A stretch of DNA of 64,000 nt from NCBI GenBank assembly GCA_964019165.1, contig OZ025270.1, positions 5,711,144-5,775,143 of the forward strand, given 5' to 3'. The notes under the pieces are model-generated. The model was not told the DNA's origin. It worked only from the letters and a program-made list of their open reading frames with translations, and made no database searches. This document shows, piece after piece, positions 5,201-51,764 of the stretch (its first letter is position 1; the number at the start of each line of letters is the position of its first letter). The stretch is from Mastigias papua (Eukaryota > Cnidaria > Scyphozoa > Rhizostomeae > Mastigiidae). Made by a program: the position numbers and the translations under genes.

Positions 5201-6088
5201 GATCAAAAGTCCTCTACCGTTGCCAATGTTCTTGTTTCCAGGGTTTTCTCAAGATTTGGACCTCCAGCAGCTATACATTCGGATCAAGGAAGGAATTTCG
5301 AAAGCAATTTAATGCATGAAATTTATAATATGATGGGTGTCAAAAAATCTCGTACTACTGCATACCATCCTCAGGGCGATGGCCTAGTGGAGAGACAGAA
5401 TAGAACCCTACAAGAAATAATATCTAATTTTGCATCTGAACATCACAATAACTGGGACCTGTGGTTAGACCAAGCAGTATTTGCGTATAATACCAGTATC
5501 CACGAGTCTACGGGGCTATCACCTTATGAACTGGTCTTTGGGCGCCCACCCCGCATGCCCATTGAAGTCGAGTTAGGAGTGCCTTTCTCTAACCCACTTA
5601 ACCAGTCAGAATACAGTCAGTATCTTAGAAAAGCTATTCAAACAGCCAATGCTCTTGCAAGACAACAGCTTGAGAAAGTTAGAAAACAGCAGTGTACCTC
5701 GTATGATAAGAGTCACAAGGCCTGGTCTCCTTTGGAAACTGGACAGACTGTCTGGCTACGCCGCCCAAAGTCCTGGAAGTTTGGGAGGAAATGGGTTGGG
5801 CCGTACCAAATATCTTCCAGGAATGGGGTCAATTACACCATTCGATCACATAATGGTCGATCACTAGTTGTGCACCACAATCAACTCAAACCCTGCCCCA
5901 TACCACTGGACCAAGGCCAGCCAGTTCACCCAACCCCTGAAATTTCGGGTATCGTTATAAGGGATAATCCCCAAGCTAGGGAACAGCTTGTAGAACCGGG
6001 CACCCAGAACAGGGTTACCGTTAGGCCCGCACACCTTCGTCAGGTAATAAACCCACCCGTGCGGTTTGGAGACATTGTACAACACTAA
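2201..6088 (+). pseudogene. pol: Gypsy-1 pol (protease, RT, RNase H, integrase) with two in-frame stops
   Basis: One frame from the slippery site to 6088, broken by TAA at 2930-2932 and TAG at 4979-4981. Order: aspartic protease (ALIDTGS near 2342), reverse transcriptase from about 3290 with CYFDDV near 3755, RNase H with QTDAS near 4200 and TEKEAL-like AMEKEAL near 4325, and an integrase zinc module whose His pair (about 4890-4920) is separated from the CVKC cysteine pair (about 5010) by the second stop. The integrase core follows, with FWALDYMGP (first Asp), HSDQGRNFES (second Asp) and GLVERQNR (Glu), then a GPY/F-like WVGPYQ segment near 5795. No chromodomain is seen. Reading through both stops restores a normal Gypsy pol order, so the decay is recent. 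Confidence 0.9.
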
Positions 6089-7599: not shown

Positions 7600-8122
7600 T
7601 GTGGAAAAACGTGACCCATTGGCCTCCAAGCCCCTGACCTCTTTCTCTTTAGCTTTTGGCTAAGTATTTCTTGTCACCTCAGTTGGAGTGAATTCTCGTT
7701 ACGTTCAGGCGCCATTTCGAACTGATATAGTTCTATAAAGGAAAACTCAATTTGTCGAAGGATAGCTCATATCGTAAAAGAACACTTTATCTCGTTTGGA
7801 GGAAATTCTACAGTTTGAAGGACACTCATATCGTTTAATCATATCAAATTCGTTGAAGGACGTACTTGCCACAGTTGGGAGACATCATTTGTATATACTC
7901 TGAAACCGAGGTGACATCCACTCTTTGTATTCATTTTTATTAGAACTATTCTTATCTACTTTCTCATTTGGAACGATTTAATATACAGTCCTCTTTACAT
8001 ATAGTTTAATTTCTTGTCTATGAACCTATGAACCACCTTGTTGGTAATCTAGCCTGTGCCCTCAGGCCATTCTTTCATGCCTGATAGTTGCGATTGAGAC
8101 AGGCACAGGTCAAAAACTTATA
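7600..8122 (+). repeat. BEL-1 5' LTR
   Basis: A 523-bp repeat identical by eye to 13,854-14,376. Its last base is also the first base of the long ORF's ATG, so LTR, primer-binding site and ORF start overlap. Confidence 0.95.
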
Positions 8123-11100
8123 TGGTCCACCGAGCCGGATTTTCAGTGTTATTTGTAGCTATTTTTGTATCTATAACTATTTCTTCTTTGTTCTGTTATG
8201 ATAATGTAAGTTTATCTAAAATGGCTCTGGAGGCAGAGGGTCAGAACACACACCCCCAAGTACCACCTATGCAAACAGTGTCTCTCTCAAGGAAGAAAAG
8301 AATTAGAGGGGGTTATCGCGCTCATGTTAGTAAACTTATTTCAGATGCTAAGAAGGAAGTAGATGATGGAAATAGTAATATATTGGCTGTTGAACATTTA
8401 ATCTCCGTGATAACCGAAAAACGTAGTATTTTGCGTAAAGCTGATGAAGAGATTTTCTCTTTAATTTCGAACGACGAAGTTGAAAGTGAAGTTTTACAGT
8501 GTGAGGACCTTCTGTCAGATATACAGAAAGTAGTAGTTGCATTAGAGGCAAAAAGGGCAAGCTTACAGCATTGTGTTCTTTCTGAACCGCAGTCATTGAC
8601 ACGCGCAAGCGAACAATCTCAAGAAAGCTTTACAAAACTGCCTAAGCTCCACCTTTCTAAATATCATGGCGACCCTAAAAAATGGACCGAATGGTGGGAT
8701 ACGTATGAAGTTATTCATGGTAACAAATCTCTTGCCCCCGTTGATAAATTTCGTCATTTGCGAACTCTTTTAGAAGGTCAAGCGGCTTCAGCTATAGCAG
8801 GACTTAAAACAACCGGGGCCAATTATAACGAAGCTATTTCTATTTTGAAAGATCGTTTTGCTCAGAAACAAATAATCATTAACTCTCATATGGAAGTTCT
8901 GTTGAATATCCGACAAGTCTCCTCTTCTAAAGATGTATCATCTATGCGAAAACTCTTTGATACCATAGAAACAAATGTGAGAAGTCTAAAAGCTCTAGGG
9001 ATTGACTTTGAGCAGTATGGAACACTTCTCCTACCGATAGTTATGGCAAAACTTCCTGAAGAATTTCGACTTGCAATTACGAAAAGTGTTAAAAAGGACG
9101 AATGGAACTTAGAGAAAGTTTTGGAAGTTTTTAAAGCAGAACTCGAAGCCAGAGAGCAATGCGGCCAGTTAGAAGCAAGTAATCCCACTGGGTCAAGTAG
9201 ACAAAACCGCACCGCGCCATTCGCCACAGCCGCGCTTTTGACCAACGAGAATAAGATTACATGTTCATTTTGTAAGCATAATCACCCGTCAGCAAAATGC
9301 AATATAGTAACCGAACCTAAGGCCCGTTTAGCAATCATCAAAGGGCAAGGAAGGTGTTTCGTATGTCTTAAGAAAGGCCATCTATCCAGAAATTGCACAA
9401 GCAAGATAAAGTGCTATTTTTGTAAACAGCGCCATCATGCTAGTCTTTGTGAAAGCAATCCATCTAGGATGGCTCCAAACCAAGTAGCGCCTGGTGGCAG
9501 TGCTAATCCTCTACAGTGGCAGCAGCATTCCAGGGAATTAAATCACGCTGTATATGCTAATCCTGAACAGCCGCAGCGCAATGTAGGCCAATTTGCACCA
9601 AATGAAGTTCGATTTGCTCCGGCGGCTCAGCGACCGCATTCATCCGACCGCGCGACTACAACCATGTATGTTGATGCTCGAAATTCAGTGTTACTACAAA
9701 CGGCTAGTGGGTACATTTCATCGGCCAGGGATGCAGGCAAGATAGCCGTTGCACGAATGATTTTTGATTCTGGCAGCCAGCGGTCGTATATTTCGCAGAG
9801 GCTCAAGGACTCTTTGGCCCTACCAACACTTTCGAGAGATACTCTTACGATAAAGAAGTTTGGCACAGAAGAAAGTAGTGTAGAAACATGCGATGTCACA
9901 CAATTTTGTGTTAGAAGTCCGTATAATAACCTCACTATGTACGTGACGGCTTATGTGTTACCAATTGTGTGCGCACCAGTCTCAAATCAGCCTCTAAATC
10001 TTGCAGTTGCTGAATACTCTCACTTAAGAAACTTACCTTTAGCGGATTTCAAGCTGTATGATCATGACGAGCTAGATATCGATATTTTGATTGGGTTAGA
10101 TTTTTACTGGATGTTTTTCACAGGATGTAGTAGAAGGGGTGAGAATGGAGGTCCAGTAGCCCTTGAATCGCAACTTGGTTGGATTCTGTCAGGAAATGTG
10201 CAGAATTGTCCAGAAAGAAGTACGGACACAGCAAACTTAGTTCAAACTCATGTGCTAAGAGTAAGTGATAGTTTTCTCAGAGAAGAAAATGAGGATGAGA
10301 CGTTGATAGCTCAGCTTTCCAAATTTTGGAACTTAGAGAGCATAGGGATAACGAAGAATGAAGAAACTGTTTATCAACGTTTTTCTGATGACATAAAGTT
10401 TGTTGACGGTCGATACGTAGTCAATCTGCCATGGAAAGAGGAGCACCCAGTGCTACCAGATAATTATGGCTTGTGTAGACGACGTCTTGACCTACTGTTT
10501 AAGAAACTCGATAACAATTCTGATTTACTCAGAGAGTACGACGCTATCATTAAAGACCAAGAGAAACGTGGCATCATTGAAAGGGTATACAAAGACCAAG
10601 AAAGCCTTGTTGGGAAAACACACTATTTACCACATCATCCAGTAGTCAGGCAAGATAAAGAAACCACTAAAGTTAGAGTGGTATACGACGCTTCTGCATC
10701 AACAACGTCAGGTACATCATTGAATAACTGCTTGTACCCAGGGCCATGCCTTTTAAAGACAGTTGGAGACATAATCACACGCTTTCGTCTTTTTCCTATT
10801 GCTCTCACTGCAGACATAGAAAAGGCATTCCTTATGATAGCAGTAGAAAAATCTGATTGTGATGTACTCAGATTTCTTTGGTATGACGACATCAATGAAA
10901 GGAGCTCACCTCCGGCAGTCTATCGTTTTCGACGAATAGTATTTGGGGTTACATCAAGCCCATTCATTCTTAACGCTACTCTGAAACATCACCTTGAAAA
11001 TTACGAACAAGTTGATTTAGAAATCATAACAAAGCTTTTAAACTCGCTATATGCAGATGATATTAATACAGGAGGCTATAGTGAAAATGAAGTGGTACGT

Positions 11101-13824
11101 ATGTATCAAGTGTCAAAGGCTATTATGAAGGATGGGGGCTTCAATCTTCGTAAATGGCAGTCAAATTCTCCAAGTGTAATGCAAGACATAAATCAATATG
11201 AAATTACATCTCCGCAATCTGTAAAAGTTTCGCTAAATGAAGACGACCAATCATACGCAAAGTCGACCTTTGAAAAAGACATACCTAAGGAAATGACAAG
11301 GATTAAAGTTTTGGGGCTGTCATGGGATAAATATGAAGACAATTTTTTCTTTCCTCTAGCAGAAATTGCTAATTCAACGGAACAACTTGCAGTCACAAAG
11401 AGAAATGTGCTGAAAACAACGGAAAAATTTTTTGATCCGGTTGGACTTATTACACCAATTACGACCCAACTGAAAGTGTTTATGCAAGAGGTGTTCAAAA
11501 GAGAAATTGCTTGGGACGATCTGTTACCGACGGATTTAGAACAGAAATGGAGCCGAATGCTTGCAGACCTAAGACAAGCTCAGCAAATTTTCGTAGCCAG
11601 ATGTTATTTTCCAGACTTACGAGATAGACCGGACAAATTGGAACTTATTGGATTTTGTGACAGTTCCGAACGTGCATACGCTGCATGCGTTTATATAAGG
11701 ATCACATCCAATGATCAAACATCAGTTAGCCTAGTAGCTTCAAAGTCGAGAGTTGCACCATTAAATAAAGTAACAATTCCACGATTAGAACTCCTTGCTT
11801 GTCTTCTGTTATCTCGCTTGATTTCTTCTCTTAAAGATTCATTACAGCCTTTAGTTGCAGTGGATATCAGTCGGTGCTATACAGATTCAATTGTTGCGTT
11901 ATGTTGGATAAAGGGAATGAATCGTGAATGGAAAATTTTCGTTGAAAATAGAGTGCAGGAAATTCGAAATCTTGTGGTTCCCAGTTTATGGTCTCACTGT
12001 CCGGGACAGCAAAACCCTGCAGATATACCAACTAGAGAGATTAATCCCGTGCTTCTACAGAATAAGGTCGATTGGTGGAAGGGTCCTAAATGGTTGGTAA
12101 GTGACCTTACCGAGTGGCCATCCGAAACAGATACAAAAGAACTTCCCGAGAATTGCATAGCGGAGCTAAAATCAGAAGGTTCAAACGTAAACGTAGCCCT
12201 TCTTGTGCAAGCGAATTCGATAACAAAGCTGAAGGAGGTTATCAAGCTAGAGAACTTTAGTAGTTACAGAAAGTTACTTCGAGTACTAGCGTATGTATTA
12301 CGTTTCATCACAAACTGTAAAGGAAAATCTGAGCAGAAGAAAGACAATCTTACTGCGGACGAATTGGACAAGGCAGAATTATTGTTAGTACAAGACGCGC
12401 AGTGTACAATACCCCATACAACACTCGAAAAGCTCTCTACACAATTAGGAATCTACAGAGACGAACATAATGTATTGCGTTGCAAAGGGCGTTTGAGTAA
12501 TGCAAGTTTACGTTTTGACACAAGGAGGCCCATCCTTTTACCAAGAGAGCATCATCTTTCAGTATTGATAATTCAAGATTGTCATAATAAGGTTATGCAT
12601 AATGGCACTAAGGAGACACTTCTTGAGTTGAGATCGCGATTTTGGATAACAAGAGGAAGACAGTTGGTGAAAAAGGTTATACATCCATGCAAGACATGTA
12701 AGCTAATTCAAGGTCCATCCTACAGTAATCCTCCAAGCAGTCAATTACCAGATTTTCGAGTTACAACAGGATATTCATTTGAAGCTGTAGGAATTGATTT
12801 CGCGGGACCGTTATTTGTTAAATCTAACCTAAACGGAACAAGAAAAGTCTACTTAGCATTATTTACGTGTGCCAGAACAAGAGCAGTTCATCTAGAGATT
12901 GTACCAGGTCTTTCTACTGAGACATTTATGCTTTGTCTTAAGCGATTCATAAACAGAAGAGGTATGCCACGCCTAATAATTACAGATAATGCTAAGACAT
13001 TTAAGTCAGCATCAAAACAACTATCGGACCTTTTCCAATCACGAAAATTTAGGTCATTTCTTGCTGATCAAAGAATTCATTGGAAATTCAATCTCGCAAA
13101 AGCTCCATGGTGGGGAGGTTTTTATGAACGGCTCATAAAGAGTATTAAGCTATGTTTAAAGAAATGCATCGGAAAAGCCAATCTTACTTACGATGAACTA
13201 AGTACAGAAATTACAAACGTGGAAGCTGTTCTGAACTCAAGACCGTTAACATATATGTATCCAGATGACTTAGCAGAACCATTAACACCATCTCATCTGC
13301 TAAGTGGACGTAGATTACTGAATTTGCCCGAATTGCCAGAAATAGACAGTGATGAAGAATATAATGAAAGAGCAGACTCCATGAGAAAACGACAAAGATA
13401 CGTGTCTCGTGTATTCCAGCATTATTGGCAACGATGGAAGAAAGAATATCTAGTGAGTTTGCGAGAATATCACCAAATTCGTGAAGGTACTGAATCAGAA
13501 ATTGAAGTAGGTCATGTTGTACTCATCGAAAACGAATTGAAGAAAAATCGACTATCGTGGAAATTAGGCAGAGTAGTGGAATTGATTACGGGAAAGGATA
13601 CTCACGTACGTGGTGCAAGAGTGAAAATGGCAAACGGCAACATTATAGAGCGACCTGTGCAAAGATTGTATCCTCTCGAGATGTCAGATAGCAACACAGT
13701 AACAGAAAGCAAACAAGAGGCAGGAATTGATCAAGAAGACACCCAGAAAAGGCCTCACAGAAAGGCAGCGAGGATTGCTAATGAGCGTATTCAGATTATT
13801 GACCAGCTAGAGAAATATCAATGA
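8122..13824 (+). CDS. gag-pol: BEL/Pao Gag-Pol polyprotein
   Basis: 1900 codons, no internal stop. The first ATG (8122) overlaps the LTR end and is followed by a hydrophobic stretch (residues about 7-26) that looks like a signal or membrane segment; the more usual Gag start is probably Met34 at 8221. Order: Gag/DUF1759-like core (about 172-330, KLPKLHLSKYHGDPKKW), three zinc knuckles (about 378-450: CSFC..H..C, CFVC..H..C, CYFC..H..C), aspartic protease with FDSGS (Asp549), reverse transcriptase with YADD (977-980), RNase H-like segment (FCDSSERAYAACVY), integrase HHCC zinc module (HNKVMHNG...CKTC), integrase core with Asp1559, Asp1622 and Glu1669, and a C-terminal DUF5641-like tail rich in W and Y (FQHYWQRWKKEYL). 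The single-frame arrangement is normal for BEL/Pao. Confidence 0.95.
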   Translation: MVHRAGFSVLFVAIFVSITISSLFCYDNVSLSKMALEAEGQNTHPQVPPMQTVSLSRKKRIRGGYRAHVSKLISDAKKEVDDGNSNILAVEHLISVITEKRSILRKADEEIFSLISNDEVESEVLQCEDLLSDIQKVVVALEAKRASLQHCVLSEPQSLTRASEQSQESFTKLPKLHLSKYHGDPKKWTEWWDTYEVIHGNKSLAPVDKFRHLRTLLEGQAASAIAGLKTTGANYNEAISILKDRFAQKQIIINSHMEVLLNIRQVSSSKDVSSMRKLFDTIETNVRSLKALGIDFEQYGTLLLPIVMAKLPEEFRLAITKSVKKDEWNLEKVLEVFKAELEAREQCGQLEASNPTGSSRQNRTAPFATAALLTNENKITCSFCKHNHPSAKCNIVTEPKARLAIIKGQGRCFVCLKKGHLSRNCTSKIKCYFCKQRHHASLCESNPSRMAPNQVAPGGSANPLQWQQHSRELNHAVYANPEQPQRNVGQFAPNEVRFAPAAQRPHSSDRATTTMYVDARNSVLLQTASGYISSARDAGKIAVARMIFDSGSQRSYISQRLKDSLALPTLSRDTLTIKKFGTEESSVETCDVTQFCVRSPYNNLTMYVTAYVLPIVCAPVSNQPLNLAVAEYSHLRNLPLADFKLYDHDELDIDILIGLDFYWMFFTGCSRRGENGGPVALESQLGWILSGNVQNCPERSTDTANLVQTHVLRVSDSFLREENEDETLIAQLSKFWNLESIGITKNEETVYQRFSDDIKFVDGRYVVNLPWKEEHPVLPDNYGLCRRRLDLLFKKLDNNSDLLREYDAIIKDQEKRGIIERVYKDQESLVGKTHYLPHHPVVRQDKETTKVRVVYDASASTTSGTSLNNCLYPGPCLLKTVGDIITRFRLFPIALTADIEKAFLMIAVEKSDCDVLRFLWYDDINERSSPPAVYRFRRIVFGVTSSPFILNATLKHHLENYEQVDLEIITKLLNSLYADDINTGGYSENEVVRMYQVSKAIMKDGGFNLRKWQSNSPSVMQDINQYEITSPQSVKVSLNEDDQSYAKSTFEKDIPKEMTRIKVLGLSWDKYEDNFFFPLAEIANSTEQLAVTKRNVLKTTEKFFDPVGLITPITTQLKVFMQEVFKREIAWDDLLPTDLEQKWSRMLADLRQAQQIFVARCYFPDLRDRPDKLELIGFCDSSERAYAACVYIRITSNDQTSVSLVASKSRVAPLNKVTIPRLELLACLLLSRLISSLKDSLQPLVAVDISRCYTDSIVALCWIKGMNREWKIFVENRVQEIRNLVVPSLWSHCPGQQNPADIPTREINPVLLQNKVDWWKGPKWLVSDLTEWPSETDTKELPENCIAELKSEGSNVNVALLVQANSITKLKEVIKLENFSSYRKLLRVLAYVLRFITNCKGKSEQKKDNLTADELDKAELLLVQDAQCTIPHTTLEKLSTQLGIYRDEHNVLRCKGRLSNASLRFDTRRPILLPREHHLSVLIIQDCHNKVMHNGTKETLLELRSRFWITRGRQLVKKVIHPCKTCKLIQGPSYSNPPSSQLPDFRVTTGYSFEAVGIDFAGPLFVKSNLNGTRKVYLALFTCARTRAVHLEIVPGLSTETFMLCLKRFINRRGMPRLIITDNAKTFKSASKQLSDLFQSRKFRSFLADQRIHWKFNLAKAPWWGGFYERLIKSIKLCLKKCIGKANLTYDELSTEITNVEAVLNSRPLTYMYPDDLAEPLTPSHLLSGRRLLNLPELPEIDSDEEYNERADSMRKRQRYVSRVFQHYWQRWKKEYLVSLREYHQIREGTESEIEVGHVVLIENELKKNRLSWKLGRVVELITGKDTHVRGARVKMANGNIIERPVQRLYPLEMSDSNTVTESKQEAGIDQEDTQKRPHRKAARIANERIQIIDQLEKYQ

Positions 13825-33961: not shown

Positions 33962-36900
33962 CTAGTGGGTTACGAAGTCTCCAAACCGCAAAGGGGGGTT
34001 TATATTTTGCCTCAATCTAGGTGGTCGATGTAGAGGGCCGGTTTGATTTTCTGGTACTTCCTCCCTGGGCATGGTGGTGAGCTCTATTTCCTCTGCTTCC
34101 CGGACTGGACAATGTGGTTCCCCCTTGTTGAATGGGATTGTGCAAGATTTTACCTGATTGTGGTGCACCACGATGTCTTTCCCTGCTTTAGAACGCAATT
34201 TGTAGTTGACACCTTGATGAGAAATAATTTTATATGGCCCAATCCACCTCCCCCCAAATTTCCAAGCCTTAGGGCGACGCAACCATACAGATTGGCCAGG
34301 GAGCAAAGGAGTCCAGTTACTATTCTTTACATTACCTGGCTGGCTATACTTTTGTCTACTGCGAGCTAAATTCTCTCTAGCTACATCTGCGACTGACTGC
34401 AAATTACGACGGATCAAGGCAGCATATTCGTGTTGACTGCAAGGGTTTTTTAAGGGTAACCCCAGATCTAGCTCCAGTGGGGTTCTAGCAAGACGACCAA
34501 AAACCATTTCGTAGGGACTATAACCGGTTGACGCGTGAGTGCTAGTATTGTAGGCATAGGCAACTAGATCCACCCAACAGTCCCAGTCATGTTGGTGTTT
34601 CGAGACGTAGCTGGTAAGCATGTCCTGCAAAGTACGATTTTGCCGTTCAACAAGACCATCGCACTGAGGGTGGTATGCTGATGTGCGAGATTTATGTACG
34701 CCCATTAGGCAGCATATTTCATGCATCAAATTGCTTTCGAAATTTCTGCCCTGATCGGAGTGGATAACGGTAGGTGGCCCAAATCTACTGAAAACTTTTG
34801 ACACTAGGATTTCAGCAACAGTCCTAGCTTTTTGGTCTTTGGTAGGAAACACCTCACACCATTTGGTGAAATGATCCATAATAACCAGCAAATGTTTGTT
34901 CCCTTGTGTGGTTTCAGGCAAGGGACCCATATAGTCCATTGCCCAAAATATAAATGGCTCATTAACGGTAATAGATTGCAAGGGAGCCTTTATGTGGTTA
35001 GGATCCAGTTTAATTTGTGCACAGACCTGACAATTTTTGACGAAATCTTGTAACTGAGTAGTCATATGCGGCCAAAAGTACCGCTCTTTAGCCTTAAGAA
35101 GAGTGCGTTTGAGTCCTAAATGACCAGAAAAAGGACTACAATGAAGGCCTTGCATGACCGATTGGACCAAGTGGCCAGGTATGACAAATGAATAGCGTGG
35201 CAAGGAATGATTAGCAGAAAGGTTTTTGACAAGAAGTCCATTAACTAGATAAAGATCATCCCAACAATGCCAAAATACGCGCAAGGATGGTGTGCCAGCC
35301 CATACAAAATACGGGGGCTTGGGCATATCAGCTAGTTTTAACTCCATAATGGTGGATATGTATGGATCATCTTGTTGGGCTTGTTGTAAATTGTAGCCTG
35401 GAGTCATGGTAGTGGCATAAGTAGCTAAGGGTGAAATAGGGGGGTCAGAGGAAACTGGGGGACAACTAGATGTTGGCAATGGCATGCGAGATAAAGCATC
35501 AGCGTTTTGGTTAGCGGTACCAGGGCGATGCTTAACAACAAAAGAGAATTCCTGAAGGGCCATAACCCACCTAGCAAGCCGTCCCTTTGGCTCTACAGAG
35601 TGGAGCCACTGTAAGGCGCTATGATCAGTAATCAAGGTGAAGTCTCTTCCCAGTAGATATACACGATAATGATCAATGGCAAAGATGATGGCTAAAGCTT
35701 CTTTTTCAGTGGTAGAATAGCATTTCTCACGGTCTAAAAGTGAACGACTAGCATACGATATCACGTGTTCTCGACCAGAGTTATCTAATTGAGTTAGTAC
35801 AGCACCCAGTCCCTTATCAGAGGCATCCGTCTGCAAGAAAAAACGTTTGTCAAATTGAGGATAAGCGAGAATGGGTGCGCTACAAAGTAAGGATTTAAGT
35901 TGCAGAAAGGCTTGCTCCTGCAAGTCAGTCCAGGAAAAAGAGGAACCTTTCTTGGTAAGCTGCACAAGAGGGGCAGACAGGACTGCAAAGTTGGGTATAA
36001 AATTACGGTAGTACCCTGCTAAACCTAAGAATGACCGTACTTGTTGCACATTGGTGGGAGGAGCGAGAGCAGAAACAGCTTCAATTTTGTGGGGATCCGT
36101 GTGAATCCCAGCAGATGAAACGACATGGCCTAAATACGTGACTCTATCAGCGCCAAAACAACATTTAGAGGCTTTAACACGAAGGTTATGTTGCTGAAAA
36201 CGACCTAAAACTAACTCAAGCCTTTCACAGTGCTGCTGTAAATTTATGGATGGAATTATTATGTCGTCAAAATAACACAAACACGTATCATACTTAAGGC
36301 CAGACAGTACAATTTGAATAGCCCTTTGGAAAGTGGCACAACCATTAGACACACCAAATGGCATTCTCAGAAATTCCCATAACCCCTCAGGAGTAATAAA
36401 GGCTGTTTTTTCACGATCTTCAGGTGACATAGCTATCTGCCAATAACCAGATCTAAGATCTAGAGTACTGAACATGGTCGATCCCTGGAGAGAATCTAAA
36501 AGGTCATCAATTCTAGGGAGGGGGTGAGCATCCCGTTTCGTCACAGCGTTTAATTTACGGTAGTCCACACAAAAACGAAAGTTACCGTCTTTCTTCTTTA
36601 CTAAAACTATGGGGGAGGCCCATGGAGAAGTACTTTGTTGGATAACCCCCTGTTCCAACATGTCAGAAATCTGTCTGTTGACTTCATCTCTATAAGCGTA
36701 TGGGAATCGCCTCGGGTATTGCCGTATGGGGTCAGTATTACCAGTATTGATTGTGTGAGTTATCACGTCAGTATAGCCAAGACTTTCGTCAAATACATTT
36801 GCGTACTTTAGGAGCGTATTTAAAATGACCTGACGATCATGGTCATTCAACGAGGGACTGATAACCGCTTTCAGCTCTTCAATAAGACTAACTTTATTGG

Positions 36901-37807
36901 CAGGCTGGCAAGAAAATGCTTTAGCATAATTAGGTAGGGGAGTGCCCTGTGTATCCACAGAAGACAGGGTATCAAGGAGAGGGCAATACTCACCTATGCG
37001 CTGTCCAGCCTGTAAAGTAATATCACAATTAGATGTGTTCATGATTCTAAGAGCTACCTGTCTACCTACGGCCTGGTTGACAGAATACGCTACTAAGAGA
37101 TGGCTTGGCAACGAGTCATGCTGGATAGGTGCTATCATGCCTAGCTGATCTTTGGCACTTTTAGGAACGTGTACTAAAACAAAAGCTTCGGTTCTACCTG
37201 GCAAACAAACACTATTCACTAAAGTAATAGGAACAGGACTCCTCGAAGGGCATTGGGAAAACACATCGGAATTACTAACGACGCTATCGGTAAGAGGACG
37301 AGGGGGAGAAAGGGAGGTGGGGGCCTCATCTCTAGGGGTAATGAGGGTCTTCCCATGGCGACCTACTAAGTAATAAGTGCCAGTGCGCTCTCTAGTTAGT
37401 GCCAACCCATTGGAGGTTAGAAAGTCCCACCCAAGAACACACTCCAAGGGGGAAAATAATTTTTCGGAAATTAAGAACTTACCGGTATAAACATCGCCAT
37501 TACCAGGAAAGGTAAGAGAAGCCTGCACAATCCCATCAACCGGCAAAGGCAGGCCATTTATTCCAACGCAGTGCTGAACTGTGTTTTGAATAAGTGGCCG
37601 AGGCCGCAATTTGTTAAATGTGTCTCGAGATAGAAACGAGACCATAGACCCGGTATCAATTAAGGCGGGAAAGGTTAAATCCCCGAAAAGGCAAGAAACA
37701 AGTGGCTGGTTGGGGGCTTGAAACGAAGCCGTGCATGACCCAGCAGAGAAAATACAGGGGTGACCTTCAACCCAGCCCTCTATTGAGGCACCCCTTTGAA
37801 GTTTAAA
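33962..37807 (-). CDS. pol: Gypsy-B Pol (by -1 frameshift from gag)
   Basis: An open minus-strand frame from the TTTAAAC site to the stop at 33,962-33,964. An internal ATG at 37,645 is not the likely start, because the protease active site (ALIDTGS) lies just upstream of it in the same frame. Order: aspartic protease, reverse transcriptase (YPRRFPYAYR, KKKDGNFRFCVDYRKLN, CYFDDIIIPS near 36,270), RNase H (QTDASDKGLGAVL, TEKEALAIIF), integrase zinc module (HCSPFSGHLG...CQVCAQIK), core with FWAMDYMGPL (Asp), HSDQGRNFES (Asp) and DGLVERQNR (Glu), and a GPY/F-like RWIGPYKI near 34,230. About 1,280 codons, normal for Gypsy pol. No chromodomain seen. Confidence 0.93.
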   Translation of the reverse strand, partial: FKLQRGASIEGWVEGHPCIFSAGSCTASFQAPNQPLVSCLFGDLTFPALIDTGSMVSFLSRDTFNKLRPRPLIQNTVQHCVGINGLPLPVDGIVQASLTFPGNGDVYTGKFLISEKLFSPLECVLGWDFLTSNGLALTRERTGTYYLVGRHGKTLITPRDEAPTSLSPPRPLTDSVVSNSDVFSQCPSRSPVPITLVNSVCLPGRTEAFVLVHVPKSAKDQLGMIAPIQHDSLPSHLLVAYSVNQAVGRQVALRIMNTSNCDITLQAGQRIGEYCPLLDTLSSVDTQGTPLPNYAKAFSCQPANKVSLIEELKAVISPSLNDHDRQVILNTLLKYANVFDESLGYTDVITHTINTGNTDPIRQYPRRFPYAYRDEVNRQISDMLEQGVIQQSTSPWASPIVLVKKKDGNFRFCVDYRKLNAVTKRDAHPLPRIDDLLDSLQGSTMFSTLDLRSGYWQIAMSPEDREKTAFITPEGLWEFLRMPFGVSNGCATFQRAIQIVLSGLKYDTCLCYFDDIIIPSINLQQHCERLELVLGRFQQHNLRVKASKCCFGADRVTYLGHVVSSAGIHTDPHKIEAVSALAPPTNVQQVRSFLGLAGYYRNFIPNFAVLSAPLVQLTKKGSSFSWTDLQEQAFLQLKSLLCSAPILAYPQFDKRFFLQTDASDKGLGAVLTQLDNSGREHVISYASRSLLDREKCYSTTEKEALAIIFAIDHYRVYLLGRDFTLITDHSALQWLHSVEPKGRLARWVMALQEFSFVVKHRPGTANQNADALSRMPLPTSSCPPVSSDPPISPLATYATTMTPGYNLQQAQQDDPYISTIMELKLADMPKPPYFVWAGTPSLRVFWHCWDDLYLVNGLLVKNLSANHSLPRYSFVIPGHLVQSVMQGLHCSPFSGHLGLKRTLLKAKERYFWPHMTTQLQDFVKNCQVCAQIKLDPNHIKAPLQSITVNEPFIFWAMDYMGPLPETTQGNKHLLVIMDHFTKWCEVFPTKDQKARTVAEILVSKVFSRFGPPTVIHSDQGRNFESNLMHEICCLMGVHKSRTSAYHPQCDGLVERQNRTLQDMLTSYVSKHQHDWDCWVDLVAYAYNTSTHASTGYSPYEMVFGRLARTPLELDLGLPLKNPCSQHEYAALIRRNLQSVADVARENLARSRQKYSQPGNVKNSNWTPLLPGQSVWLRRPKAWKFGGRWIGPYKIISHQGVNYKLRSKAGKDIVVHHNQVKSCTIPFNKGEPHCPVREAEEIELTTMPREEVPENQTGPLHRPPRLRQNINPPLRFGDFVTH

Positions 37808-38751
37808 GACTTACCAGACATCGATGAGCCTTGTGAGGAACAGACATAGTTGTTGGCGCATTGGTGTTGTTCATGGCCCCAGCCCGCACAGAGGGCACAT
37901 TGTAAAGTATAGGGGCAGGAATTCACAAAATGCCCAAGTCCATTACAATTAAAGCAGCGACGGGCTTGGTTGTTCCGTGATCTTGTATTTTGACGTGTCT
38001 GGGGGTGAAATCCATCTGGTGCACTGTTCTGCATACGTGGAGCGGTAAAACGGCGCGTGAAAGGTTGGTGGGGCGGCTGAGGAGTAGGGGCAGACATCGC
38101 GGCTTCAAGGTGCTTATGGCGGTCTGTCAAAGCAGTAACTGCGGCAGTAAGTTGCGTCACAGTGTCTTGAAGGCTGTGAAATTTGCTTGCCATCTTTTCG
38201 TCATCAACTCCAGCGGCCGGTTTGACGGCAAAGGTCAAAGTGGGGATATCTGCTTGACGAATAGCCCGAAAACGTTTTGCGAAGTTCTCCATTTCCGCCA
38301 ATGACGGCGTTGGATTGGCTTCTAAGAGTTTCAACCGTATGCCTTCGGGCAAACCACGCATAAATTGCCTGCTTAATAGGGCCTCTCGTGCAGCATCGCT
38401 GAGGGAAGGATCGGCTTTTGAAAGTAAGTCCTTCAAATTCCATAAAAATATAGTGGGGTCCTCGTCTGGCCGGAGAAGGCGATGTTCAAATGTCGCAAAA
38501 TTTCGTTCGCGATCAACAGCAGGGCAAAAGGAGGCCAGCAATTGTTCTTTCAAATTCCGATACGAGCCTTTCACCTCGTCGGGCAAAGCATGGAAATAGG
38601 CGGCAGCAGGCCCCCTTAGAAAGGCTGGTAGAACTTGTAACTGCTTCTCCTCATTCCAAGCATTGGCAGTAGAGCAGCATTCGAATTGGCGAAACCAGGA
38701 AACAATATCGCCTGAATCAAACTTCTCAGGTTGAATTGAAAAAGTTGCCAT
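37780..38751 (-). CDS. gag: Gypsy-B Gag
   Basis: 323 codons from ATG at 38,751, about 35 nt after the 5' LTR. The N-terminal part has FRQFECCSTANAW and LPAFLRGPAAAYFHALP; the core has FEHRLLRPDEDPTIFLW and LLSRQFMRGLPEGIRLKL. A predicted helical middle follows (KFHSLQDTVTQLTAAVTAL), a Pro/Arg-rich linker, and two knuckles (CFNCNGLGHFVNSC and CALCAGWGHEQHQC) near the end. It stops seven codons after the slippery heptamer. The near-complete match in order to Gypsy-1 gag shows common descent. Confidence 0.93.
   Translation of the reverse strand: MATFSIQPEKFDSGDIVSWFRQFECCSTANAWNEEKQLQVLPAFLRGPAAAYFHALPDEVKGSYRNLKEQLLASFCPAVDRERNFATFEHRLLRPDEDPTIFLWNLKDLLSKADPSLSDAAREALLSRQFMRGLPEGIRLKLLEANPTPSLAEMENFAKRFRAIRQADIPTLTFAVKPAAGVDDEKMASKFHSLQDTVTQLTAAVTALTDRHKHLEAAMSAPTPQPPHQPFTRRFTAPRMQNSAPDGFHPQTRQNTRSRNNQARRCFNCNGLGHFVNSCPYTLQCALCAGWGHEQHQCANNYVCSSQGSSMSGKSLNFKGVPQ
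37801..37807 (-). promoter_or_regulatory. -1 frameshift heptamer TTTAAAC (Gypsy-B gag/pol)
   Basis: On the minus strand, TCT-TTA-AAC in the gag frame places T-TTA-AAC in the slippery register. The -1 frame is open from here through the protease. Same motif and distance to the gag stop as in Gypsy-1. Confidence 0.7.
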
Positions 38752-41451: not shown

Positions 41452-41687
41452 GAAATAGGAGATGAAATCACCATATATAATCAACATTAAGAGGACTTCA
41501 TTTTATAAGAGAAGTCATCATCATTCATAAGTTACTGCAACAATATTTGATAAGTAACCTTTCACCAAATCTGTATTCTTTTTCTGACAATGCAAAATAA
41601 GACACTTAACATAATGATTTTGTTACACTTCCCTTTTATCCATAGCTCCGGTATCTCATGTACCTCTTGCTAGATATATCATCAAAT
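41452..41687. other. Middle piece of the periodic-ended TIR element
   Basis: This lies between the BEL-2 right target copy and the left target copy (CATCAAAT, 41,680-41,687) of the RING transposon. No coding capacity. It continues logically into 47,504-47,963. Confidence 0.5.
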
Positions 41688-41695
41688 GGGGTCCG

Positions 41696-41791
41696 TTCGA
41701 TATTCCGACAGTTCGATATTCCGACAGTTCGATATTCCGACAGTTCGATATTCCGACAGTTCGATATTCCGACAGTTCGATATTCCGACAG
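41696..41791 (+). repeat. Six perfect 16-bp units, left end of the transposon
   Basis: TTCGATATTCCGACAG repeated six times without a mismatch, starting 8 bp from the terminus. Probably multiple transposase binding sites (inference). Confidence 0.95.
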
Positions 41792-42146
41792 TTGATTTTG
41801 ACTATGTTATAGTACATTCCTTAGGTAAGTGCATTAACAAGACCAGGGACGCCTGCACATGAAAAGGGCAAGGGGGTAAAATTTGTTTCCAGGGCACCAG
41901 ACATGATGAAATATTTTTATAAGAACGGTATATTATTTTATGGCGGGTGCTGAAAGAGTATTTCATCCTAAGATGCTACTCCAACCGACTTTCGAAAATT
42001 CAACGACTTAAGAATAATATAAAATCTTATTTTCAAATTGAAAGAACACAGTAAGATTTTGGCAGCCAATTTAACTAAAACAATATTTTGGAATATTGCT
42101 TCCTTGACTGCTCCTAAAATTTTCAGCGGATATTTCTAGGCCCAGG

Positions 42147-42952
42147 TAACAAGGGCGAAAATCGTTATTAACCAATCAGCTTCATACTCTCATATGCTGT
42201 AAAAGCCAATCAGAGCTCGTAGAGGCCCCCTGACTCTTCTGAAAATGTAAACAATGGCGGCCAAACAGCCGCCGAGCTGTGGGAAAGTGACGCTCGAACT
42301 CCGAACTGCTGCATGCAAAAAACGCTCAAAACAAAATAAACTGATGTTTTTCATTTAATATAGGAGTCATTCTAGGTTTTCATCGTGCGCATTTTGAAAA
42401 CTCCCTATTAAACTGGAGATATGACAGTTTAAAGTTAGCCTAAATTCGCCAAATTTGCACTACACTTGAAGCTTCGAACCACAGTACAGTATTTACCACA
42501 CATCCACACAGACTGTCTGCTTTTAAATTGAAATCATCTTATAAAGTCATACAAACTATTGAATTTCTAACAATTTCAATTAGGCTTTTACAATTTTAAC
42601 CATTTGTTAGATACCAAAAAGGCCTTCTTTAACACAATTCTCTCTATCTACTGTACATCAAATTTTGTTACTTGAATTTTGAAAAGGTAACTTGGTCACC
42701 TGAAGAAAATTGAAATCCAACAGTAATTGTTGCTATCATTAATTATTGCCGCATCCTAATGCGGCGAGGAGGCCTATCTTTATTTTCGGTTCAACACTAA
42801 TTTTTTTCATGGAATATCAATTTGTAATAAGTCTACATGATGATGCAGGGGGCTATCACCACAAATTCTCTACATACAAGTCTAACACTCCCGAGAGAAT
42901 TGAACGCCCGTCGTGTTAAATCAATATTACAAAAGTACATTTTCAGATCAAA
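42147..42952 (+). repeat. 806-bp internal inverted repeat, left arm
   Basis: Begins TAACAAGGGCG and ends TTCAGATCAAA. The reverse complement matches 46,429-47,234 over the same length with no mismatch in the roughly 230 bp I compared base by base and none noticed elsewhere. It holds no open frame and could carry the promoter for the inward gene. Confidence 0.93.
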
Positions 42953-43119
42953 TGTTAAATGTACTTTACGAAACCCCTGTTATGTTGAAACAAAGCTGTA
43001 AGGAATGTTGTTTGGAGAATTTATTTGACTTATCTTGATACGATACTATTAAGTTTTTAAAGAAAATTACTTAATAATGCCGAAAGTGTTCACAAGGCTT
43101 TGTCATAATCCTCTTCATT

Positions 43120-46100
43120 ATGCATGGACTGGCGATACAACAGAGAAAAAACATAATTTCTTTGCGAGCTAATGGCTTGGGGAAAGTTATCAATGTATTT
43201 AGAGCCATTGAAGTTGAAAGAGATGAAAGAAGGAAAAATATAACAAATTGCTGTTCGCTTTGTCTCACGTATTGCTGTGAAAAAGGGATTTTAAAGAGGA
43301 AATTTATAAAAAAAATTACACCGCAATTAATTGTAAAGGTTAGTAAATTTTTTTATTTGTATTTATATACCAGCCCAGGGACGCCGGAACTATATTAGGG
43401 GAAAGGGGCCCAACAGGAAGGGAGGGACGCTCAAGACCACTGGTGAGAAAAGTGAGCCAAAAATGGGGGCTCTCTTGAATGCCCTTTCCATTTGTCAGTA
43501 TATATGGTACAATTTGAGCAATATCTGATATTTATAATTTTTGTGAATTATGCATCTCTACAAGACTCGTTTGATTTGAGTGATTTGAGCGATTTATGTA
43601 TTTCTACAATCTTAATACTAAGACAAAATTTTCAAAATCAATTCATTTTTTGTAGATACAAGCCGTTTTAAAAGAGCATGGATCCACAACAAGTGATTTT
43701 GAATGGGAGTCATCAGTAACTGAAACAGAAGACTCTGAATTATGTTCTCAAGCATCCTCCTCTGGTCAGCTTCCACTTCAAAACGATTCGCAGATAATTT
43801 TGTCTTCGAAAACCCAAGCTGGTACAGAAGAAAAGTCCTCTCAAACAGACATTTCTGGTTTTTTTAGGCAGGAATTGTATGATGAAATAGCACAAAAGTC
43901 TTCTGCTAAATTTGATATGAAAGAAGAAATCATAAGAGTTAGAGCAAAGTGTAATGAAATTTTTGGGGCTAATGGGTACCCTGAAATGGATCCAGGAAAA
44001 TTGGAGAGGATATGTCTAGAAGCCAATGCCTTAAACATATTTCCGTTTATTCATAACGCTATGTGCCTGGACAGAGCCTCTGAAAGTCGATGCTACTTAA
44101 ATAAAATCCGGACAATGGTTGTGATTTATATGATGATGTATGGACAGTCTCAGCGAGCCAATTGGTTCCAGGTTGCCCTTTCCAGAACACTATCCCAGCA
44201 TGGAATTAGCGATTGTGGTTTAGCATCACTAAGAAACCTAGGAATCACTGCCCATCCTCGCACAGTTACCTTAGCATCACTTTCATCAGCTTCAAGTCAC
44301 CTATCATCTGTAAATGAGTTCATTAAAGAGGCAGCAGATAAACAGCACTTCATTGTCTTTTTCATTGACGACTTTCACAATATTCATACCATGCATCGCC
44401 CTTCTGATAAAAAGCAATCACAGTCAGTTCATATGTCAACTCTTCTCATCAAAGTATTCAAAAACATAAATGCCATACCAGTAGAAAGAAATGCAAGTGC
44501 ATTGAACAAAGAGCCAGCTAATGACTCTTTACTTAAAGCAATAGTGGATAGATGCATGAGCACATTATCAAAAACATATGCCCAAGTAATGCCTGATTAT
44601 ATCACATCCAAGTATTTTGATCCAGAGGAAGAAAGAAGAAGGCTCCTTATTCATGATTATCAGCAAACAGAATTGAAAGAAATGAGATCAATGCATAACA
44701 CAAAACTGGTAGATTGCTTGGAGATGCCTTTAAAAAACTTTCAGGACACCGTTGCTGCTCTCGAATACATTTTTCATAACGGGCTTTCCACTTATCTTGC
44801 CAAATTTTTTGTACCATTCATTGGTGACTGGCCAACACAATTCTACATGCGTCAGTTTGTATACAGTGATACAGTATTTCTTCGTAATAAACGTAACATT
44901 CTTCCTTTTATTGGCCCATTGCACATCTCATTGAATTCAAGGCAATCTGTTGTACTGAAATTCTATCCTCTCTTTAAAGAAATGCATTGCTTTTTGTTTG
45001 GTAGAAAGGCAGTTTTGGCTAAGAAGCCAAAAGCCTGGCGCCAGTCTTTGCTATTGGAAATTTTGTATGGTGGTTGGTCATTAATTCGAGATGAAATAAT
45101 GGCTCTTTTTGACAAATGCAAAGATACAGAATATCTTACCATCCTAAACCTTCTCGATAATTACTGCCCTCTAGTTTTAAGTCTGTACTCCATTGAGTTC
45201 AAAAATAACTACTTTGAGAATTTCTTCCATTCTATCCTTCGCTGCTGGGTGATGCTAGTAATTTTCAATAGAAGACATTACAACAAAGCCCTTATAATTC
45301 TTCTCACTTCTTTCTATCATTTGCAAATAACTGGCCATCCTCTTTACCACGTCCTCTCTAATCATTTAAACGCCTTTGATGAATATCCCGTCGAAAACTT
45401 TCATTCCATCCTGAGAAGCAAAACAAAGTCCACGGACACTGGAGAGCAAATTTTTCGAAAGGCAAGAGAAATTGATGCCTGTAAAAATGATCTTCAAGAA
45501 TTCCAATCATGGTTTGTTTCGAAAAGAAAGCATGCGTTCTGCCCAAAAAAGATCAAAAGTTTAAAGCTTCAAGCTGCAAAGTTTTTAATTAGCAAATTTG
45601 AAAGGATCGGAGATAATCCAGGACAAGCAAAGATGATACGTAGGACCAGGGGACAGAAAAAGACCCTAACAAAATGGATGCTTCCGAACATATTTGGCAA
45701 TGAAATCGTCAGTAATGAAGTTTTACCACTTGCATATAACGATCCTCAGACTATGCCTTCAAATGAAAAGTAAGTAGTGCCTAACGATCTAGCTAGCACT
45801 GTTCTTTACTTTGATCTTTAATATTTTTCGATTGTTACCATATTAAATGCTCAATGAAATGATTCGTCGTATTTCATTACTTTGATATATCAATTGGCTT
45901 CACACTCTATTTTGTTCTGAAATTGCGAAAACATACTAACTCAACTGCTTAAAATACAGTATTTTAATCTACCGATCTATTTGAATATTTTGAAACAAAA
46001 ACCTACCACTGCCATCTAGGAAATGCGACAAACATGGATGCAGTTCAGCCAGCCCCATATGGAAACTTTTTCAATGCGGGCATTCTTTCCACGTTGATTG

Positions 46101-46371
46101 CAATTTGCCGGCTTTGAGCGAGTGTCCTGTTTGCAAAATTCATCTGAAAAGTAAAATCCAAGATCTATCGAGGAAAGCCAATGAATCCATCAAAGATCTG
46201 ACCTTTTGCGTTGATGATGGAGCCGAACTTGAAGGTGAGATTGATCAACATGAAAATTCCAACAGTACTATCGATGAGGATTTGGGTGATGTTTATGTTG
46301 ACCAACAAGAAGTGCTTTTGATGATTCAGCAAATTTCCTCGTGGCCACGGCCATCTCCACCGAGAATTTAA
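43120..46371 (+). CDS. Three-exon putative D/D/E transposase with C-terminal RING-like zinc module
   Basis: Predicted exons 43,120-43,338, 43,656-45,769 and 46,020-46,371, joined by AAG|GTTAGT...TTTTTTGTAG (phase 0) and AAA|GTAAGT...CATCTAG (phase 2); total 2,685 nt, 894 residues. Exon 1 has paired cysteines (NCCSLCLTYCC). Exon 2 is the core: candidate catalytic residues are the Asp pair in VFFIDDFHNIHT (44,367-44,372), Asp in FIGDWPTQFYMRQF (44,826) and Glu in DEYPVENFHSILRS (45,393). Exon 3 has C..H..C, then CGHSFHVDC and CPVC, a RING-H2-like arrangement, and an acidic tail. The TTG at 43,800 that begins an unspliced frame is not a start. No other gene lies in the element, so this should supply its transposition. 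Exon 1 start and superfamily are uncertain; D/D/E assignment is inference. Confidence 0.7.
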
Positions 46372-46428
46372 ATGAAATGTGATAAATTAATCCACGCTAC
46401 TCATTCGAACAGTACGTGAATTGTTATT

Positions 46429-47234
46429 TTTGATCTGAAAATGTACTTTTGTAATATTGATTTAACACGACGGGCGTTCAATTCTCTCGGGAGTGTTAGA
46501 CTTGTATGTAGAGAATTTGTGGTGATAGCCCCCTGCATCATCATGTAGACTTATTACAAATTGATATTCCATGAAAAAAATTAGTGTTGAACCGAAAATA
46601 AAGATAGGCCTCCTCGCCGCATTAGGATGCGGCAATAATTAATGATAGCAACAATTACTGTTGGATTTCAATTTTCTTCAGGTGACCAAGTTACCTTTTC
46701 AAAATTCAAGTAACAAAATTTGATGTACAGTAGATAGAGAGAATTGTGTTAAAGAAGGCCTTTTTGGTATCTAACAAATGGTTAAAATTGTAAAAGCCTA
46801 ATTGAAATTGTTAGAAATTCAATAGTTTGTATGACTTTATAAGATGATTTCAATTTAAAAGCAGACAGTCTGTGTGGATGTGTGGTAAATACTGTACTGT
46901 GGTTCGAAGCTTCAAGTGTAGTGCAAATTTGGCGAATTTAGGCTAACTTTAAACTGTCATATCTCCAGTTTAATAGGGAGTTTTCAAAATGCGCACGATG
47001 AAAACCTAGAATGACTCCTATATTAAATGAAAAACATCAGTTTATTTTGTTTTGAGCGTTTTTTGCATGCAGCAGTTCGGAGTTCGAGCGTCACTTTCCC
47101 ACAGCTCGGCGGCTGTTTGGCCGCCATTGTTTACATTTTCAGAAGAGTCAGGGGGCCTCTACGAGCTCTGATTGGCTTTTACAGCATATGAGAGTATGAA
47201 GCTGATTGGTTAATAACGATTTTCGCCCTTGTTA
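46429..47234 (-). repeat. 806-bp internal inverted repeat, right arm
   Basis: Inverted partner of 42,147-42,952, starting 57 bp after the gene's stop codon. It probably also supplies the 3' UTR or terminator region. Confidence 0.93.
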
Positions 47235-47391
47235 GCTCGGTTGACTAAGACAGGGAAAAAAACGAAGAAGCTTGAGCCGACAACATTGTTTCAAATTAAT
47301 AGACAGTAGCAGAAAAATATTGTCTAATCCTACTGTAAGAAATTTTCCTTGATTTTTGGTATTTTTAGGTAAATTAACGTTTTTTCTCCAA

Positions 47392-47487
47392 CAGTCGGAA
47401 TATCGAATTGTCGTAATATCGAACTGTCGGAATATCGAACTGTCGGAATATCGAACTGTCGGAAAAGCGAACTGTCGGAAAAGCGAC
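47392..47487 (-). repeat. Six 16-bp units, right end of the transposon
   Basis: Inverted version of the left array. The innermost two units have single changes. The outermost two share the variant core CTTTTC in place of ATATTC (read outside-in), followed by the terminal GGCCCC. Confidence 0.93.
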
Positions 47488-47503
47488 CTGGCCCCCATCA
47501 AAT

Positions 47504-49820: not shown

Positions 49821-50409
49821 ATATCTCAGGCCTCTCCGGGAAAAAATACCAGGTGGGCTATAAAAAGCCCTTGTACATTTGGCTGCGTGGGCTATTTAGC
49901 CCTTGCAGAACTGTTGATTAGTTTTTACATTTGAGTATTTGCAAAGGCAAAAGTACATTACCTTGCCAATTCTTTAAACACTATTCACATTAAGAAGGCA
50001 TTTTTGTTTGTACTACTACCTTAAAAGTTTGCATTACAACCGTAATCATGCTATGGGCTGTTCCTTTCGTGCGGAAACATTTCCTATTCCATTGAACGTT
50101 TTAAGAGGGTAATACAAAAGTTGTTAACATGTGCTATATAAGGAAACGGAAATCTCCTATTTATATCGCCAGTTTATAAACACATAGACGTTATTTACTA
50201 ACACCCTGATATTTAATGGTAAGTAGTTCAACCATTGGAAAGCTAAAGCCTAGTTCAAACGTCGAACTTTTCATGCGCTGAACTTATTGCAAATTTAGGT
50301 CGACCCAAATGAATTTAATCCGCATTTGGTTCAGACGTCGTACTTTTCATGAATCGAACTAAATAGTACAGGATGACAGCCTCGATTTGAAAATCAGGGA
50401 ATCACTACA

Positions 50410-51764
50410 ATGTTGCGGTATAATTTTACTTTGAAGAAAGGCGGGAGAGTGGCAGAATTGAACATGGCAGAAAATCATACTTTGGTCAAAGTCATTGCTG
50501 TAAAGAACCTGATACAAAGAAACAGGCAACGAAGAAAGCTCCTTCTTGCGAGTATTGCATCAGCAATTCTAAGAAGAAGGCGGCTGGTAAAACTTTGCAT
50601 GACAGCCCTACTTTGGGTGTTGAATGCTTTTAGAAACAAGCCAGCACTTCGGTCATGTCGACGTTTGCAACGCAATGGAGGATGGTGGAATGTTGTGTGG
50701 AACACATACACTGATGCAAGATTCAAGAAGGCCTTCAGGGTAAACATTTGCACTTTCCTTTATATTTTGGAGAGGATAAGACACGCCATTGAGCGAGAGA
50801 CAGTAACTGAAGTACCGATTTCTCCTGAGCAAAGGCTGGCCCTTTGTCTCTACCGACTTGGTCGAGGAGACTATTTCTACACAATTTCCCAAATGACTGG
50901 CTTTGGAACTTCTACAGTCTGTACCATAGTTTCAGAGGTAGCGAAAGCAATAGTAGATTGCCTTTGGGATCAGCATGTTACCAGATATATGCCCAACTCT
51001 GAAGCTGAACTTTGCGAGAAAATAAGTGAAATGGAAGAGGCATGGCAGTTCCCATGTTGTTGGTCAGCTGTAGATGGTTGCCATATACCAGTCAAGTGTC
51101 CTGCTGGAGGATTAGAATCATGTAAAGAATACCGTAACTTTAAGAACTTCAATTCAGTTGTTTTGATGGCCATGGTTGATTCCCACTATAGATTTATTTG
51201 GTGCAGCTGTGGATTCCCTGGCAATTCACATGATTCAATAATTTTTCAGTCAACTGATATGTGGAGAAGCCTAATGGAAAATGAAACCCTTTTGAAAACT
51301 GGAAAGGAAATTGGTGGAGTTTATATTCCAGCTTTGGTGCTTGCTGATTCAGCATTTCCCCTTAAGTCCTGGATAATGAAACCCTACAGCAATGCAGGAC
51401 TAACTGAACAGCAGAGGTACTACGATTATCGTCTCAGCAGAGCAAGAATGGTGGCTGAAGAGCATTTGGCCAACTGAAAGGCCACTGGCGTGTCCTGCAT
51501 CGCAAGTGTGAAAGTAATGCTAAGGAGGTGAAAATTGTCACACTGGCTTGTGTTGTTTTGCACAATATTTGTATTTTGCACAATGATAAACTGCCTAAAT
51601 ACTGGGATCTTACTGCAGGTCTGCAAAGAAGTACAGAAGTCAGAGATATGTTAAATATGACAATGGTCCAGAAAATGAATGACTCTGAAAAGGAGGCAGT
51701 CAAGATCAGAAGCACCTTGGCAAAGCACTTCTGGCAGGAAAAAATTAAGGCAGAGGAATTTTGA
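50410..51764 (+). pseudogene. Harbinger (PIF/DDE_Tnp_4) transposase with one-base deletion
   Basis: An open frame of 355 codons to 51,477, then the same protein continues in the next frame to 51,764. The N-terminal helix-turn-helix region (PEQRLALCLYRLGRGDYFYTIS, FGTSTVC) precedes the DDE domain: Asp222 in CWSAVDGCHIP, Asp313 in VLADSAFPL, and the catalytic Glu350 in RMVAE. The frame is lost in the next codon: a single missing base at about 51,461 separates RMVAE from AFGQLKGHWRVL and VVLHNICILHN. Otherwise nothing is damaged. The start may be Met at 50,464 rather than 50,410. The enzyme would need the partner SANT protein for nuclear import and DNA binding, as known for Harbinger. Confidence 0.88.

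What the first reader, a model, noticed from the sequence alone, without database searches (positions are those of the whole stretch)
41688..47495. Unclassified DNA transposon with two separate tiers of inverted repeats
Seen: exact 8-bp TSD, GGGG-starting ends running into 6 x 16-bp arrays, unrelated spacers of 355 and 157 bp, then 806-bp inverted arms around one three-exon gene. Known 8-bp-TSD groups (hAT, P, Zisupton/KDZ, Novosib, some Mutator-like) do not normally show this architecture together with a RING-like transposase tail. Inference: an undescribed family or superfamily.
Basis: partly seen in the sequence, partly recalled or inferred. Interest (0 to 1): 0.85.

Follow-up and report, generated by a model that had tools for sequence, protein, structure and literature searches.

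The report
Two nested jumping genes, not one
What looked like one strange DNA transposon with two layers of inverted repeats is a gene-bearing transposon that landed inside a smaller, unrelated one; the inner one belongs to an animal transposase family that we could not place in any known group, and that is the part worth attention.

Summary
Six other copies of the gene-bearing element in the same genome end at the inner arms, in flanks that hold no outer sequence, each with a 9-bp target-site duplication (five exact, one 8/9). The 16-bp arrays, GGGG ends and 8-bp duplication belong to an outer element found at many other sites without the inner one. At this site the inner element replaced about 286 bp of the outer one and left no duplication. 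A long relative of the outer element encodes a Pfam Mutator-like transposase. The inner gene's core is predicted as an RNase H-like DDE transposase with a helical insertion; P-element transposase and Hermes tie as best solved fold matches, P over more residues. No Pfam transposase profile matches it; THAP domain and the P D(2)H motif are absent and the duplication is 9 bp. About 150 relatives were found; the six with an organism name are cnidarian. So the two-tier architecture is ordinary nesting with an odd junction, and the inner family is a candidate new superfamily-level lineage.

The parts
41680..41687 (+). 8-bp target-site duplication of the outer element, left copy (CATCAAAT)
41688..41793 (+). 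Outer element, left terminus (GGGG) and 16-bp subterminal array
41794..42147 (+). Outer element, left internal part, also present in outer copies L002-L004 (in L005 its second half only)
42148..47233 (+). Inner transposon, 5,086 bp, ends AACAAGGG...CCCTTGTT
42148..42952 (+). Inner element, left terminal inverted repeat (805 bp)
43077..43338 (+).
43656..45769 (+). Inner gene, exon 2: DDE transposase core, open in this copy
46020..46371 (+). Inner gene, exon 3: RING-like tail and stop codon
46429..47233 (-). Inner element, right terminal inverted repeat (805 bp)
47234..47389 (+). Outer element, right internal part, 91-96% identical to outer copies L002-L005
47390..47495 (-). Outer element, right 16-bp array and terminus (CCCC)
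47496..47503 (+). 8-bp target-site duplication of the outer element, right copy (CATCAAAT)

Best explanation
The interval is a nested insertion. Outer layer: a non-autonomous Mutator-like element (16-bp subterminal arrays, GGGG ends, 8-bp duplication), presumably moved by a PF20700-type transposase such as that of the 3,376-bp relative on C23. Inner layer: a 5,086-bp transposon (805-bp terminal inverted repeats ending AACAAGGG, 9-bp duplication as a family habit) whose spliced gene encodes a DDE transposase. [quoted passage not shown] a Cys/His-rich first exon precedes it and a RING-like tail follows it. Shown: the nesting, the ends, the duplications in other copies, the conserved acidic residues, the multi-copy spread. 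Predicted: the fold. Inferred: that the transposase binds the arm ends, cuts the element out and joins both 3' ends to target sites 9 bp apart, and that the Cys/His-rich parts bind zinc and help in DNA binding or complex assembly. This particular insertion left no duplication and lost about 286 bp of the outer element, either by an aberrant join of the two ends to separate sites or by recombination between two neighbouring insertions.
Confidence: 0.92

Rival explanations
1. A single transposon with two tiers of inverted repeats: arrays as outer ends, arms as inner repeats, one transposase acting on both.
For: One perfect 8-bp duplication flanks the whole interval and the symmetric order is intact.
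Against: Six gene-bearing copies end at the arms with 9-bp duplications and have no outer sequence around them; of 32 sites with both exact outer ends only the window and C23 are longer than 1,053 bp, and C23 encodes a different transposase.
Confidence: 0.02
2. The inner element is a very divergent member of the P superfamily, with long repeats as in Galileo.
Against: Hermes ties by Z. P profiles do not match while a P protein of the same genome matches all of them; profile-profile comparison finds nothing; 45 of 500 column shuffles reach the E-motif score and the P H, D1 and D2 motifs do not land on their places; D(2)H is G-P-L-H; no THAP domain; 9-bp duplication against 7-8; insertion domain alone has no convincing match.
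Confidence: 0.25
3. The inner element is a divergent Mutator-like element (MULE).
Against: No MULE or Mutator profile matches, while the outer relative does; P and Hermes score higher in fold comparison. No direct comparison with a MULE model was made.
Confidence: 0.15
4. The inner element is cargo that the outer element carries and mobilises as one composite.
For: The outer 8-bp duplication around the composite is intact.
Against: No second composite among the 32 paired outer sites; the outer copies read that retain this part run through the junction.
Confidence: 0.03

Closest known systems
P superfamily (Drosophila P element, Galileo, THAP9)
   Same: [quoted passage not shown] top VIA match with the widest cover; similar stretch at the catalytic E; Galileo has long repeats
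   Different: 9-bp instead of 7-8-bp duplication; no THAP or P profile; G-P-L-H instead of D(2)H; RING-like tail; insertion domain alone without convincing solved match
Mutator-like elements (PF20700; MULEs such as Muta1 of Aedes)
   Same: Outer element: PF20700 transposase in its long relative, 8-bp duplication, short subterminal tandem repeats. Inner element: long repeats and 9-bp duplication
   Different: The inner transposase matches no MULE or Mutator profile
hAT (Hermes)
   Different: No hAT profile match; 9-bp duplication (the 8-bp value for hAT is recalled); repeats of hundreds of bases
Transib / RAG1
   Different: No profile match; 9-bp duplication (the 5-bp value for Transib is recalled)

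Membership tests
Mutator-like (PF20700), outer element | Mutator-like transposase profile in a relative with the same ends | tested here: met
   L057 (C23, 3,376 bp, both outer ends, duplication 8/8): PF20700 E 1.8e-63. The window's outer element itself encodes no transposase of its own
Mutator-like (PF20700), outer element | 8-10-bp duplication, terminal repeats over 100 bp, often short subterminal tandem repeats (PMC5225508 passages) | tested here: met
   13 of 21 copies with a perfect 8-bp duplication, 4 with 6-7 of 8, 4 unmatched in that register; 107-bp repeats, 91% complementary; 16-bp arrays; criteria
P superfamily, inner element | P transposase profiles (PF12017, PF21787, PF21788, PF21789) | tested here: not met
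   none in 34 of 34 members scanned at E 0.01; positive control L070 matches all four
P superfamily, inner element | N-terminal THAP domain | tested here: not met
   no match in P0003, which holds exon 1, or in the window exon 1 frame
P superfamily, inner element | D(2)H motif | tested here: not met
   G-P-L-H: G337 in 68 of 68 rows, H340 in 67 of 68; motif from PMC4168063 passage
P superfamily, inner element | 7-8-bp duplication | tested here: not met
   9 bp in 13 of 15 loci, none in 2
[quoted passage not shown]
   predicted model: beta-5 332-336, helical 338-490, alpha-4 494-506; definition PMC7776569 passages
P superfamily, inner element | GTP-binding insertion domain | tested here: inconclusive
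   [not shown]
MULE / Mutator, inner element | MULE or Mutator transposase profile | tested here: not met
   none in 34 of 34 members
MULE / Mutator, inner element | 8-10-bp duplication and repeats over 100 bp | tested here: met
   9 bp; 805-, 719-720- and 536-bp repeats
hAT, inner element | hAT profiles of Pfam | tested here: not met
   none in 34 of 34 members
KDZ / Zisupton, inner element | KDZ profile PF18758 | tested here: not met
   none in 34 of 34 members; the profile rings at 13 places of this genome, none of them at an inner copy
Novosib, Merlin, Kolobok and other superfamilies, inner element | their transposase signatures beyond Pfam | not tested
   Repbase and Dfam were not at hand

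The most novel reading that the evidence does not exclude
The inner element represents an undescribed superfamily of animal cut-and-paste transposons: a DDE transposase of the P/hAT/RAG-like fold class with an insertion domain of its own, a Cys/His-rich front exon and a RING-like tail, perfect or near-perfect terminal repeats of hundreds of bases and a 9-bp duplication, with copies so similar (97-100% in the core protein) that it was mobile recently.
Probability: 0.4. Interest if true: 0.6.

Novelty: new variant of a known kind. Interest (0 to 1): 0.42.

Why it matters
Nesting removes the apparent architectural anomaly. What is left is a multi-copy animal transposon family whose transposase has no Pfam model but a P- or hAT-like predicted fold. 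If it is a separate superfamily it adds a branch to the transposases related to P, hAT, MULE and RAG1, lets one ask how insertion domain and duplication length evolve together, and, as sister copies are 97-100% identical in the core, may offer a usable transposition system. It would also allow proteins now listed as 'uncharacterized' in cnidarian genomes to be labelled as transposases.

Tried and rejected
Viral-contig scan for relatives: 35 pattern hits, none a relative. BFVD fold search: no match at E 0.001. PDB sequence search: 0 matches at E 10. Pfam near-hits to AAA, acyl-CoA dehydrogenase and others are below their cut-offs and were taken as chance. DUF6589 was suspected from a remembered motif; the Pfam scans gave no match, and the four DUF6589 places in the genome are elsewhere; part of one (L078) was read and not compared further. 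Profile-profile comparison with seven P proteins of the same genome failed, but both alignments were shallow (Neff about 2.6 and 2), so it is a weak test. A sliding motif comparison with P was first run with one motif out of register and with duplicate P sequences; the mended run supersedes it: only the E motif lands on its predicted place (45 of 500 column shuffles reach its score), while H, D1 and D2 do not. Insertion domain alone: no convincing solved match; a missing match does not show a new fold, and neither P nor hAT among them is an absence in a capped list.

Literature: the listings showed no paper that, by title or abstract, describes this family; the library is open-licence PubMed Central only, and Repbase and Dfam could not be searched. 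I saw passages of PMC4168063, PMC7776569 and PMC5225508 and listings of all others.

Protein relatives: 103 at E 0.01, 130 with the profile, 120 listed, 31 at E 0.1 with the distant set, 152 ids in all; only the 7,990 to 7,998 candidates sharing most words were scored each time. Six of the 152 carry an organism name: Rhopilema esculentum (five) and Dendronephthya gigantea (one), both Cnidaria.

Full report
What was checked first.

The two tiers are two transposons. The window lies in a 346.8-Mb genome of 172 contigs (G000) that can be searched. The core protein has seven near-identical full-length matches there, the window's own included (97-100%; 63 of 254 candidates scored). The other six were fetched with flanks. 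Their alignments over 300 bp end at the inner arms; no 16-bp array unit and no other outer sequence (blastn, E 1e-3) is found in any of the six stretches. Five of the six are 5,084-5,087 bp long, and L051 is 4,626 bp because of an internal deletion. Each is flanked by a 9-bp duplication directly outside AACAAGGG...CCCTTGTT, five exact and one 8/9. A search with the arm found it at 98% or more at 11 loci (22 matches; 40 of 60 candidates scored), four of which are short, internally deleted copies. Of those four, two have an exact 9-bp duplication, one has it with a two-base offset at the left end, and one (C20) has none. In all, 13 of 15 loci examined, four sister-family copies included, carry the 9-bp duplication; the window and C20 do not.

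The outer element exists alone. The left 453 bp gave 86 matches (40 of 82 candidates scored). Exact left ends lie at 38 places and exact right ends at 45, with 0 for the reversed control patterns. Both exact ends pair at 32 sites, of 617 to 1,053 bp except C23 (3,376 bp) and the window (5,808 bp). Of 21 copies read, 13 had a perfect 8-bp duplication, four had 6-7 of 8, and four did not match in the automated register; in L004, L010 and L011 the same bases appear shifted by one or two positions by eye. Outer copies L002-L005 run through the place where the inner element sits and carry 285-287 bp that the window lacks; then they rejoin the window's right spacer at 91-96% identity. The inner element thus replaced that piece, and its flanks GGCCCAGGT and AGCTCGGTT form no duplication (5 of 9).

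What the outer element is. The 3,376-bp copy (L057) has the same two ends, a perfect 8-bp duplication and a 524-residue open frame matching PF20700, Mutator-like transposase, at E 1.8e-63. Whether that gene is intact was not settled. Mutator-like elements typically have terminal repeats over 100 bp and 8-10-bp duplications, and 10 of 12 long-repeat Aedes families have short subterminal tandem repeats (PMC5225508, passages). The arrays and the 8-bp duplication are therefore ordinary for that kind. That this transposase moves the window's outer element is inference from shared ends.

What the inner element is. It is 5,086 bp with 805-bp repeats. Two sister families in the same genome, 48% and 43% identical in the core protein, have 719-720-bp and 536-bp repeats, ends AACAGAGG and exact 9-bp duplications in 4 of 4 copies read. 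The gene model is supported by P0003, a 961-residue relative 65% identical over the core, whose front and tail match exons 1 and 3. Exon 1 reads in one frame in six of six sister copies (in L056 from residue 4) and is frameshifted in the window. Other damage seen: one stop in the core of L053 and of L054, a frame break in exon 3 of L054, a shorter exon 3 match in L052, no exon 3 in L051. The tail's C-x4-C, C-x-H-x2-H-x2-C, C-x2-C pattern recurs in one sister family and in the distant relative P0103, and with a two-residue insertion in the other sister family. The RING label rests on sub-threshold Pfam matches (best E 0.00014).

Membership. P profiles match a P protein of this genome but none of 34 members of this family. 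Profile-profile comparison finds nothing, with shallow alignments. D(2)H, given for P in PMC4168063 (passages), is G-P-L-H here, and no THAP domain was found. In a sliding comparison the P catalytic-E motif scores best at model 490-507, the predicted place, but 45 of 500 column shuffles score as high, and the P H, D1 and D2 motifs do not land on their places. MULE profiles also fail, although duplication and repeat length would fit. The insertion domain folded alone (pLDDT 93.9) has no convincing match. I therefore describe it as a DDE transposon of the P/hAT/MULE/RAG1 fold class without assigning a superfamily.

Spread. The three protein searches gave 152 ids. Six carry an organism name, five Rhopilema esculentum and one Dendronephthya gigantea, both Cnidaria; the rest are unnamed, so the true range is open. 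The host is probably a cnidarian, by inference.

Verdict. The two-tier architecture is ordinary nesting with an unusual, duplication-free junction. The inner family is the real content: without a Pfam model, not described in the papers listed by nine searches, and possibly a new superfamily.

Noticed in passing
window 42147/42148 and 47233/47234: The inner insertion lacks a duplication and coincides with the loss of about 286 bp of the outer element; one other copy of the family (C20:12134449-12137111) also lacks a duplication, so 2 of 11 loci.
   Followed up: partly
window 2933-6088 (+) and 33962-37810 (-): Open frames with reverse transcriptase, RNase H and integrase domains of LTR elements (the likely Gypsy label is recalled).
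   Followed up: partly
window 8098-13824 (+): 1,908-residue open frame with Pao peptidase, DUF1759, reverse transcriptase and integrase matches: a Pao/BEL-type element with a long open frame.
   Followed up: partly
window 50377-51477 (+): 366-residue open frame with DDE_Tnp_4 (E 5.1e-21), of the kind found in Harbinger-like transposons (label recalled).
   Followed up: no
L031-L034 (C3, C4, C23, C11): Four copies of a sister family, 99.8-100% identical over the 4,914 bp held, each with six stop codons in the core match, which suggests recent spread of a damaged copy, perhaps by transposase supplied in trans.
   Followed up: no
L046/L047 (C8:11478206-11479450 and 11484526-11485770): Two related copies in opposite orientation about 5 kb apart, 99.7-99.9% identical: neighbouring inverted insertions or a local duplication.
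   Followed up: no
G000, whole genome: The P-type RNase H profile PF21787 gives 151 matches in this genome, many with long open frames and identical scores, so canonical P elements also look abundant and recent here.
   Followed up: no
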